Below, piece after piece: positions 30,299 through 30,585 of a DNA stretch of 64,000 bases. Source of the stretch: Caldilineaceae bacterium. Its GTDB lineage: Bacteria; Chloroflexota; Anaerolineae; Caldilineales; Caldilineaceae. The position numbers and the translations under genes were made by a program. The stretch is from NCBI GenBank assembly GCA_022821585.1, contig JAJEDI010000035.1, positions 1-64,000 of the forward strand. The letters are read 5' to 3'. Under the pieces are notes generated by a model that worked only from the letters and a program-made list of their open reading frames with translations, did no database searches and had not been told where the DNA came from. Every line of letters starts with the position of its first letter. Position 1 is the stretch's first letter.

Positions 30299-30327
30299 TT
30301 GACAATGTCCCGAATTTATGAAATACT
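30299..30327 (+). promoter_or_regulatory. Promoter of the short hairpin transcription unit
   Basis: TTGACA at 30299-30304 is a perfect -35. After 17 bases comes AATACT at 30322-30327, a 4/6 -10. Transcription would start near 30334, only 13 bases before the perfect Shine-Dalgarno of the 19-codon ORF. Confidence 0.55.
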
Positions 30328-30349
30328 GTCGGCGTATCTTTAACACAAG

Positions 30350-30440
30350 GAGGTGATGCCCTATGGATAACTGTAGTAGCAGTACTGGTCCGATAGCATC
30401 ACCTCAAGAGAGAATTCTCTAAGTAATGCTATCGGACCAG
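30350..30440 (+). promoter_or_regulatory. Two mutually exclusive hairpins (attenuator-like leader)
   Basis: Stem 1: GAGGTGATGC at 30350-30359 pairs perfectly with GCATCACCTC at 30396-30405 and covers part of the Shine-Dalgarno. Stem 2: CTGGTCCGATAGCAT at 30385-30399 pairs perfectly, 15 bp, with ATGCTATCGGACCAG at 30426-30440. The stems share bases 30396-30399, so both cannot form at once. The loop of stem 2 contains a 12-base palindrome, AGAGAATTCTCT (30409-30420). Translation of the small ORF would run through both left arms. The arrangement resembles translation-coupled attenuators, but the regulator and target are unknown. Confidence 0.55.
30363..30422 (+). CDS. Putative 19-residue leader peptide
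   Basis: ATG at 30363, four bases after AAGGAGGTGATG (30347-30358), of which AAGGAGGTGAT is fully complementary to the usual bacterial 16S rRNA 3' end. The peptide reads MDNCSSSTGPIASPQERIL and ends in TAA. It has a Ser run but no strong run of one rare amino acid typical of classical amino-acid attenuators. Codons 9-13 also form hairpin arms, so the sequence may be constrained by RNA structure rather than by the peptide. It resembles no protein I know. Confidence 0.4.
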   Translation: MDNCSSSTGPIASPQERIL

Positions 30441-30446
30441 ACGTCG

Positions 30447-30473
30447 CAAGGCCCCGTCATCGACGGGGCCTTG
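30447..30473 (+). terminator. Strong GC hairpin closing the short unit
   Basis: CAAGGCCCCGTC and GACGGGGCCTTG form a perfect 12-bp stem with a three-base loop. The downstream sequence TACATTGGAC lacks a good T-run, so it may be a pause/terminator or an RNA-protecting 3' hairpin. It would end a transcript of about 140 bases. Confidence 0.55.
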
Positions 30474-30556: not shown

Positions 30557-30585
30557 TTGACAAACAGCACGAAGTGGGAGATAAT
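30557..30585 (+). promoter_or_regulatory. Promoter of the cytochrome P450 gene
   Basis: TTGACA at 30557-30562 and GATAAT at 30580-30585 with a 17-base spacer: a perfect -35 and a 5/6 -10, among the best promoters in the window. The predicted start near 30592 leaves a leader of about 120 bases before the P450 ATG. Confidence 0.65.

What the first reader, a model, noticed from the sequence alone, without database searches (positions are those of the whole stretch)
30299..30473. Short transcription unit with perfect Shine-Dalgarno, internal anti-Shine-Dalgarno mimic and switching hairpins
A consensus promoter starts a ~140-base unit that begins almost at once with AAGGAGGTGAT, the full complement of the 16S rRNA 3' end, and a 19-codon ORF. 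Within the ORF, GCATCACCTC pairs perfectly with the Shine-Dalgarno region. Part of the same segment also belongs to a 15-bp stem with bases after the stop codon. The two stems exclude each other, and a 12-bp GC hairpin closes the unit. This has the design of a translation-controlled RNA switch, or of an RNA that titrates or senses the ribosome. No known element with this layout comes to mind.
Basis: seen in the sequence. Interest (0 to 1): 0.78.

Follow-up and report, generated by a model that had tools for sequence, protein, structure and literature searches.

The report
Chloroflexota-wide ribosome-site RNA switch
A free-standing, usually single-copy gene found across the bacterial phylum Chloroflexota makes a short RNA with an ideal ribosome-binding site and an internal copy of the ribosome's matching tail, so it can fold to hide or expose its own start signal; no known RNA family has this layout and what it does in the cell is unknown.

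Summary
The window holds one member of an RNA gene family that I found across Chloroflexota: 247 of 395 genomes of its class (model R1) and at least 13 families outside it (model R2), nearly always one copy. Members keep a strong promoter, a perfect Shine-Dalgarno (SD), a 12-22 codon ORF with an internal anti-SD strand, a stem (P2) closing just after the stop codon, and a terminator. P2 shows very strong covariation. The competing SD:anti-SD stem (P1) is kept with one clear compensatory change at an SD position. In folding of growing transcripts P1 forms first and P2 replaces it, freeing the SD; this needs the locus's own 3' arm. Neighbours are not conserved, antisense promoters are rare, and Rfam has no match, so it is not a leader attenuator, a classical type I toxin locus or a known family. 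Best reading: a bistable, translation-gated small mRNA/sRNA. What it acts on is unknown; a ribosome-availability sensor is attractive but untested. No transcript data were available.

The parts
30299..30327 (+). sigma70-type promoter TTGACA-N17-AATACT (TG before the second hexamer)
   Evidence: a promoter of at least 9/12 lies upstream in 69 of 72 homologues
30334..30473 (+). predicted transcript, about 140 nt
   Evidence: start inferred from the -10 position, end from the terminator hairpin; no transcript data
30347..30357 (+). AAGGAGGTGAT, perfect Shine-Dalgarno (complement of 16S ...ATCACCTCCTT)
   Evidence: 16S 3' end GGATCACCTCCTTTCT read in a Chloroflexota rRNA operon (L240); no 16S match in the window's own assembly
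30363..30422 (+). 19-codon ORF MDNCSSSTGPIASPQERIL plus TAA
   Evidence: short ORF kept in homologues, stop 9-14 nt after the anti-SD in the Anaerolineae set
30350..30359 (+). P1 5' strand GAGGTGATGC (SD)
30396..30405 (+). P1 3' strand GCATCACCTC (anti-SD mimic, inside the ORF)
30385..30399 (+). P2 5' arm CTGGTCCGATAGCAT (inside the ORF)
   Evidence: covariation
30426..30440 (+). P2 3' arm ATGCTATCGGACCAG (starts 3 nt after the stop codon)
   Evidence: covariation; its synthesis flips the predicted fold from P1 to P2
30447..30473 (+). 12-bp GC hairpin, intrinsic-terminator-like (weak T tract here)
   Evidence: terminator-like hairpin in 65 of 73 homologues against 6 of 73 in control stretches

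Best explanation
An independent, ancient, usually single-copy gene of Chloroflexota for a small RNA of roughly 140-200 nt that is also a mini-mRNA and a bistable switch. One strand inside the ORF (anti-SD plus P2 5' arm) pairs either back to the SD (in several lineages also spacer and AUG; P1, translation off) or forward to the bases after the stop codon (P2, SD freed). Proposed cycle: P1 forms on the nascent RNA; finishing the RNA lets P2 replace it; a 30S subunit then binds the perfect SD; the translating ribosome opens P2 and stops at the base of its 3' arm, and P1 can re-form behind it, so translation is timed and self-limiting. Shown: the conserved parts, covariation, standalone position. 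Modelled: the P1-to-P2 flip. Inferred: that ribosomes drive the switch. The final output (RNA acting on the translation machinery or other RNAs, or the peptide) is not known; I favour the RNA because the reading frame through the conserved segment differs between clades.
For: Spread: 16/17 genomes of the genus by DNA; 247/395 genomes of the class with R1, nearly always one copy; 79 of 80 pattern loci from all GTDB species are Chloroflexota; R2, built mostly from sequences outside the class, finds 74 of 400 phylum genomes at E<=0.001 and re-finds the window element. P2: 96.8% of cells paired, 10 of 12 pairs with changes on both sides, 0/500 shuffles as high on covariation. P1: all 46 Anaerolineae rows pair (partly forced by the pattern); at the variable SD base the partner is C only when that base is G (22 G:C, 0 A:C; 142/150 paired, at most 133 in 2000 shuffles). 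In another 12-row alignment the same strand serves both stems. Growing-transcript folding: P1 at ends 30407-30434, P2 at 30440; over 159 loci mean SD openness 0.09 (ORF only), 0.33 (own 3' arm), 0.12 (another locus's), own higher in 89%. Standalone: downstream orientation 39:32, 46 neighbour clusters in 71 loci. Frames VASP, RHHL and RITS over the same RNA segment.
Against: No transcript, probing or ribosome data. P1 covariation rests on few positions because 16S fixes the SD; the extension into the spacer did not beat swapped controls by energy (own better in 0.49), though one spacer position did. SD openness even with P2 averages only 0.33. In the window genus P1 and P2 could partly coexist as a pseudoknot. 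Codons 2-8 show mild coding constraint (synonymous fraction 0.40 against 0.22 expected; pairs not independent), so a useful peptide is not excluded.
Confidence: 0.6

Rival explanations
1. A gene for a functional micropeptide whose mRNA folds so as to delay or limit translation, like type I toxin mRNAs, with the peptide as the product.
For: Perfect SD, strong promoter, short ORF kept everywhere, serine-rich start (M-D/N/S-x-S-S), mild coding constraint in codons 2-8; SD-masking by sequences inside the ORF is known for AapA3 (PMC6733600).
Against: Peptides are 12-22 residues, serine-rich and lack an obvious hydrophobic stretch by eye; the C-terminal half is read in different frames in different clades while the RNA is kept; antisense promoter inside the element in only 2 of 72; usually one copy per genome.
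Confidence: 0.25
2. A 30S-binding decoy, a ribosome counterpart of 6S RNA: the RNA offers an ideal initiation site, binds 30S subunits and damps translation under some condition; the anti-SD is its off state.
For: Near-invariant perfect SD with little else to translate; strong promoter and terminator; phylum-wide single-copy gene.
Against: No abundance or binding data; the stop codon position is kept, which a pure initiation decoy would not need; P2 does not fully open the SD in models.
Confidence: 0.15
3. A trans-acting sRNA whose exposed anti-SD loop (CACCTC) binds SD regions of other mRNAs, with ribosome binding to its own SD controlling exposure.
For: In the P2 state the anti-SD sits in an apical loop in Anaerolineae, as in C-rich SD-targeting sRNAs (own knowledge).
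Against: In the other classes most of the anti-SD is buried in P2, so loop presentation is not general; its sequence is explained by pairing to its own SD.
Confidence: 0.1
4. A leader-peptide attenuator or riboswitch acting on the downstream gene (here a cytochrome P450).
For: Leader-ORF-like layout with a terminator.
Against: Downstream genes differ and are as often convergent (39 against 32; 46 clusters in 71 loci); the P450 gene has its own 11/12 promoter-like site at 30557-30585; the terminator is not part of either alternative stem.
Confidence: 0.03

Closest known systems
Type I toxin mRNAs with metastable SD-sequestering structures (AapA3 of Helicobacter pylori, PMC6733600; hok-type mRNAs)
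   Same: Short ORF, standalone transcript with its own terminator, anti-SD (also inside the ORF), sequential co-transcriptional folds gating the SD
   Different: Antisense promoter seen in only 2 of 72; hydrophilic, clade-variable peptide; usually one gene per genome across a phylum; here the late stem frees the SD, whereas the AapA3 long-distance stem locks it
Translation attenuators and leader peptides (regulatory uORFs)
   Same: Short ORF whose translation would rearrange mutually exclusive hairpins; stop codon next to a stem arm
   Different: No conserved downstream gene; terminator outside the switch
Dual-function sRNAs (SgrS/SgrT, SR1/SR1P; own knowledge)
   Same: Independent sRNA gene carrying a short ORF
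   Different: No known shared sequence; here the ORF itself holds the switch strand and the anti-SD
Chloroflexi-1 RNA (RF01698, reported from Chloroflexus aggregans; PMC2864571)
   Same: Structured RNA candidate from Chloroflexota
   Different: No Rfam match to any element tested, including the one from the C. aggregans-sized genome (L256)
6S RNA (own knowledge)
   Same: Idea of an RNA mimicking the ideal substrate of a core machine
   Different: Different machine and fold; analogy only

Membership tests
Any Rfam 15 family | covariance-model score at or above the gathering cut-off | tested here: not met
   no match in the window, the weak E-value scan is mostly microRNA-type noise well below cut-offs, none at the elements in 14 closed-genome loci or 20 further loci
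Type I toxin-antitoxin mRNA | SD masked by an anti-SD in the primary transcript | tested here: met
   P1; predicted, not probed
Type I toxin-antitoxin mRNA | overlapping antisense RNA gene | tested here: not met
   antisense promoter-like site in 2 of 72 elements
Type I toxin-antitoxin mRNA | hydrophobic, membrane-acting peptide | tested here: not met
   Ser/Arg/Lys/Cys-rich 12-22-mers by inspection of the translations; no dedicated predictor run
Leader-peptide attenuator | conserved co-directional downstream gene | tested here: not met
Leader-peptide attenuator | terminator/antiterminator choice | tested here: inconclusive
   terminator helix forms alongside P2 in the full predicted fold of the window element; antitermination cannot be tested without experiments
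Dual-function sRNA | independent gene with promoter and terminator | tested here: met
   (sequence signals only)
Dual-function sRNA | base-pairing targets in trans | not tested
   no target prediction or interaction data
30S-binding decoy RNA | stable 30S association and high abundance | not testable with these tools
   needs sedimentation and RNA-seq

The most novel reading that the evidence does not exclude
A phylum-wide regulatory RNA that reads ribosome state through direct competition between the real 16S tail and an internal copy of it, an analogue for the ribosome of what 6S RNA is for RNA polymerase, acting in trans on translation.
Probability: 0.22. Interest if true: 0.95.

Novelty: categorically new. 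Interest (0 to 1): 0.84.

Why it matters
A usually single-copy RNA gene kept across several classes of an old phylum is likely to matter to the cell, yet it is absent from Rfam. Its design makes the competition between 16S rRNA and an internal mimic of its tail directly testable, and homologues lie in genomes whose chromosome lengths match cultured strains (Chloroflexus, Roseiflexus, Herpetosiphon, Sphaerobacter). It would be a new example of translation gating built wholly into a small RNA.

Tried and rejected
Known family: no Rfam match. Mobile or phage origin: no exact pattern match in viral contigs; in plasmids only a 29-nt piece near the terminator in one Streptomyces record. cis-regulator: no conserved neighbour. 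General adjacency to rRNA operons, suspected because many hits seemed near contig ends: many of those ends were only chunk boundaries of the stored loci; among 14 closed-genome loci only L240 lies beside an rRNA operon. P1 extension into the spacer as a general covarying helix: not supported by energy swaps. The one non-Chloroflexota pattern hit (L039, Rhizobiales) lacks P2 and its ORF runs on for 52 codons, so it is taken as chance. The own 16S gene could not be read. Running R1 on another phylum as background was not possible with the tool.

Full report
WHAT IS THERE. TTGACA-N17-AATACT ends at 30327; the SD AAGGAGGTGAT is 30347-30357; a 19-codon ORF runs from ATG 30363 to TAA 30420-30422; GCATCACCTC (30396-30405) is the perfect complement of GAGGTGATGC (30350-30359), stem P1; 30385-30399 pairs with 30426-30440, stem P2; a 12-bp hairpin closes the unit at 30473. 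The fold has z = -7.7 against dinucleotide shuffles.

IT IS A CONSERVED GENE FAMILY. A DNA search found it in 16 of 17 genomes of the genus, and its SD-to-anti-SD core in other families of the class. A degenerate pattern scanned over one genome of each of about 85,000 species returned 80 loci (80 is also the output limit), of which 79 are Chloroflexota: Anaerolineae, Caldilineales and Thermoflexus records (the one titled only 'bacterium' is counted with them because it carries the full element). The exception (L039) has no P2 and a longer ORF and is taken as chance. A covariance model of 46 diverse members (R1) matched 247 of 395 class genomes, nearly always once per genome, and 95 of 400 phylum genomes including weak hits outside the class. 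Reading these showed the same layout with different sequences. A second model (R2) built from 12 of them (one from the window's class, 11 outside it) matched 74 of 400 phylum genomes at E<=0.001, in 13 families outside the class, and independently re-found the window's element at E = 1.4e-4.

ANATOMY ACROSS THE FAMILY. Promoter: at least 9/12 in 69 of 72 loci and at least 10/12 in 67. Terminator-like hairpin: 65 of 73 against 6 of 73 in control stretches. ORF: mostly 15-19 codons; in the Anaerolineae set the stop lies 9-14 nt after the anti-SD whatever the frame. The same RNA segment is read as VASP in most Anaerolineae, but as RHHL or similar (L036, L095, L051, L054) or RITS (Thermoflexus) in others, so the RNA rather than the C-terminal peptide is what is kept.

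TWO COMPETING STEMS. P2: 96.8% of cells paired, 10 of 12 pairs with changes on both sides, covariation score 0.461 against 0.166 in shuffles (0/500), and far above slid controls. P1 in the 46 Anaerolineae rows: 100% paired but with little variation, and the pattern used to collect them enforced much of it. Freer evidence comes from model-selected loci. At the variable base of GGAGGTG[A/G]TG the partner is T with A (107), C or T with G (22 and 13), and never C with A; 142 of 150 pair against a shuffled mean of 125 and maximum of 133. These loci fall in a few clades, so independent events are fewer than the counts. Whole P1 duplexes are stronger with the own than a swapped partner in 67% of draws; extension into the spacer is not supported by energy swaps (0.49), although one spacer position pairs in 51% against at most 46% in shuffles. 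In the 12-row alignment the same strand makes P1 (89.6% of cells) and P2 (79.9%, covariation 0/500), overlapping by about ten positions. There exclusion is complete; in the window's genus the overlap is 4 nt and a pseudoknot holding both is conceivable.

SWITCHING. Folding growing transcripts of the window's element gives P1 for ends 30407-30434 and P2 from 30440, with mean SD openness rising from about 0.15 to 0.47, then 0.30 in the full unit. Over 159 loci the mean is 0.09 with the ORF alone, 0.33 with the own 3' arm and 0.12 with another locus's 3' region; own exceeds swapped in 89%. These are equilibrium models without pseudoknots or ribosomes.

WHAT IT IS NOT. Neighbours vary (46 clusters in 71 loci; 39 convergent, 32 co-directional), so it is not a leader of a downstream gene. 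Antisense promoters occur in 2 of 72, unlike type I toxin loci. Rfam 15 has no match at the element in the window, 14 closed-genome loci or 20 further loci, including the C. aggregans-sized genome, where Chloroflexi-1 (PMC2864571) is known. No viral match.

MECHANISM. Most likely: P1 hides the SD on the nascent RNA; completion lets P2 take over; a 30S subunit binds the freed perfect SD; translation opens P2 and ends at the base of its 3' arm, and P1 can re-form behind the ribosome, limiting re-initiation. The first two steps are modelled, the rest inferred. The closest studied mechanism is the set of metastable SD-sequestering hairpins of AapA3 mRNA, one inside the ORF (PMC6733600), but there the late structure closes the SD and here it opens it.

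OUTPUT. Unknown. Codons 2-8 show a mild excess of synonymous change (0.40 against 0.22; pairs not independent) and a striking use of AGT for serine (110 of 149, against 15 of 125 in six window genes), so the ORF is probably translated. Whether the peptide, the RNA or the act of translation matters is open. I favour the RNA.

VERDICT. The existence and spread of the family are near certain (above 0.95); bistable translation gating about 0.6; ribosome sensing in trans about 0.2. The rating 'categorically new' refers to the layout and the family; the individual parts (SD masking, alternative hairpins, short ORF) are each known from other systems.

Noticed in passing
window 30557-30585: Near-perfect promoter (TTGACA-17-GATAAT, 11/12) just upstream of the cytochrome P450 gene at 30712, so that gene need not depend on the RNA unit.
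   Followed up: partly
window 30369-30386 and homologous codons: Ser codons in codons 3-8 of the ORF are mostly AGT (110 of 149 over the Anaerolineae set, against 15 of 125 in six window genes), with frequent CGT and TGT; codon-level or RNA-level signal unexplained.
   Followed up: partly
L033-L112, about 5-15 nt upstream of the SD: Conserved GCYATCCYA motif between promoter and SD in most Anaerolineae (window: GTATCTTTAA); it does not consistently pair within the RNA.
   Followed up: partly
upstream of the element, e.g. L037, L107, L109, L112: Many genera outside the window's genus have an extra 5' stretch, often an inverted repeat, between promoter and motif; in L037 this stretch reads GGATCACCTCC, identical to the 16S 3' end.
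   Followed up: no
L240 4998-5427: In the Herpetosiphon-sized genome (family f80) the element lies about 340 nt beyond, and convergent with, the 23S end of an rRNA operon; two other f80 genomes (G464, G637) have it about 450 nt from a contig end.
   Followed up: partly
genus g16 (G031, G036, G165, G231): Four genomes of one genus in the window's family have no R1 match; loss or divergence.
   Followed up: no
G661 (L261, L262): A genome outside the class with two divergent copies of the element, unlike the usual single copy.
   Followed up: no
L198, L199 (family f73): Weak R1 hits where a short ORF with a strong SD ends inside a terminator hairpin; possibly a reduced relative or unrelated.
   Followed up: no
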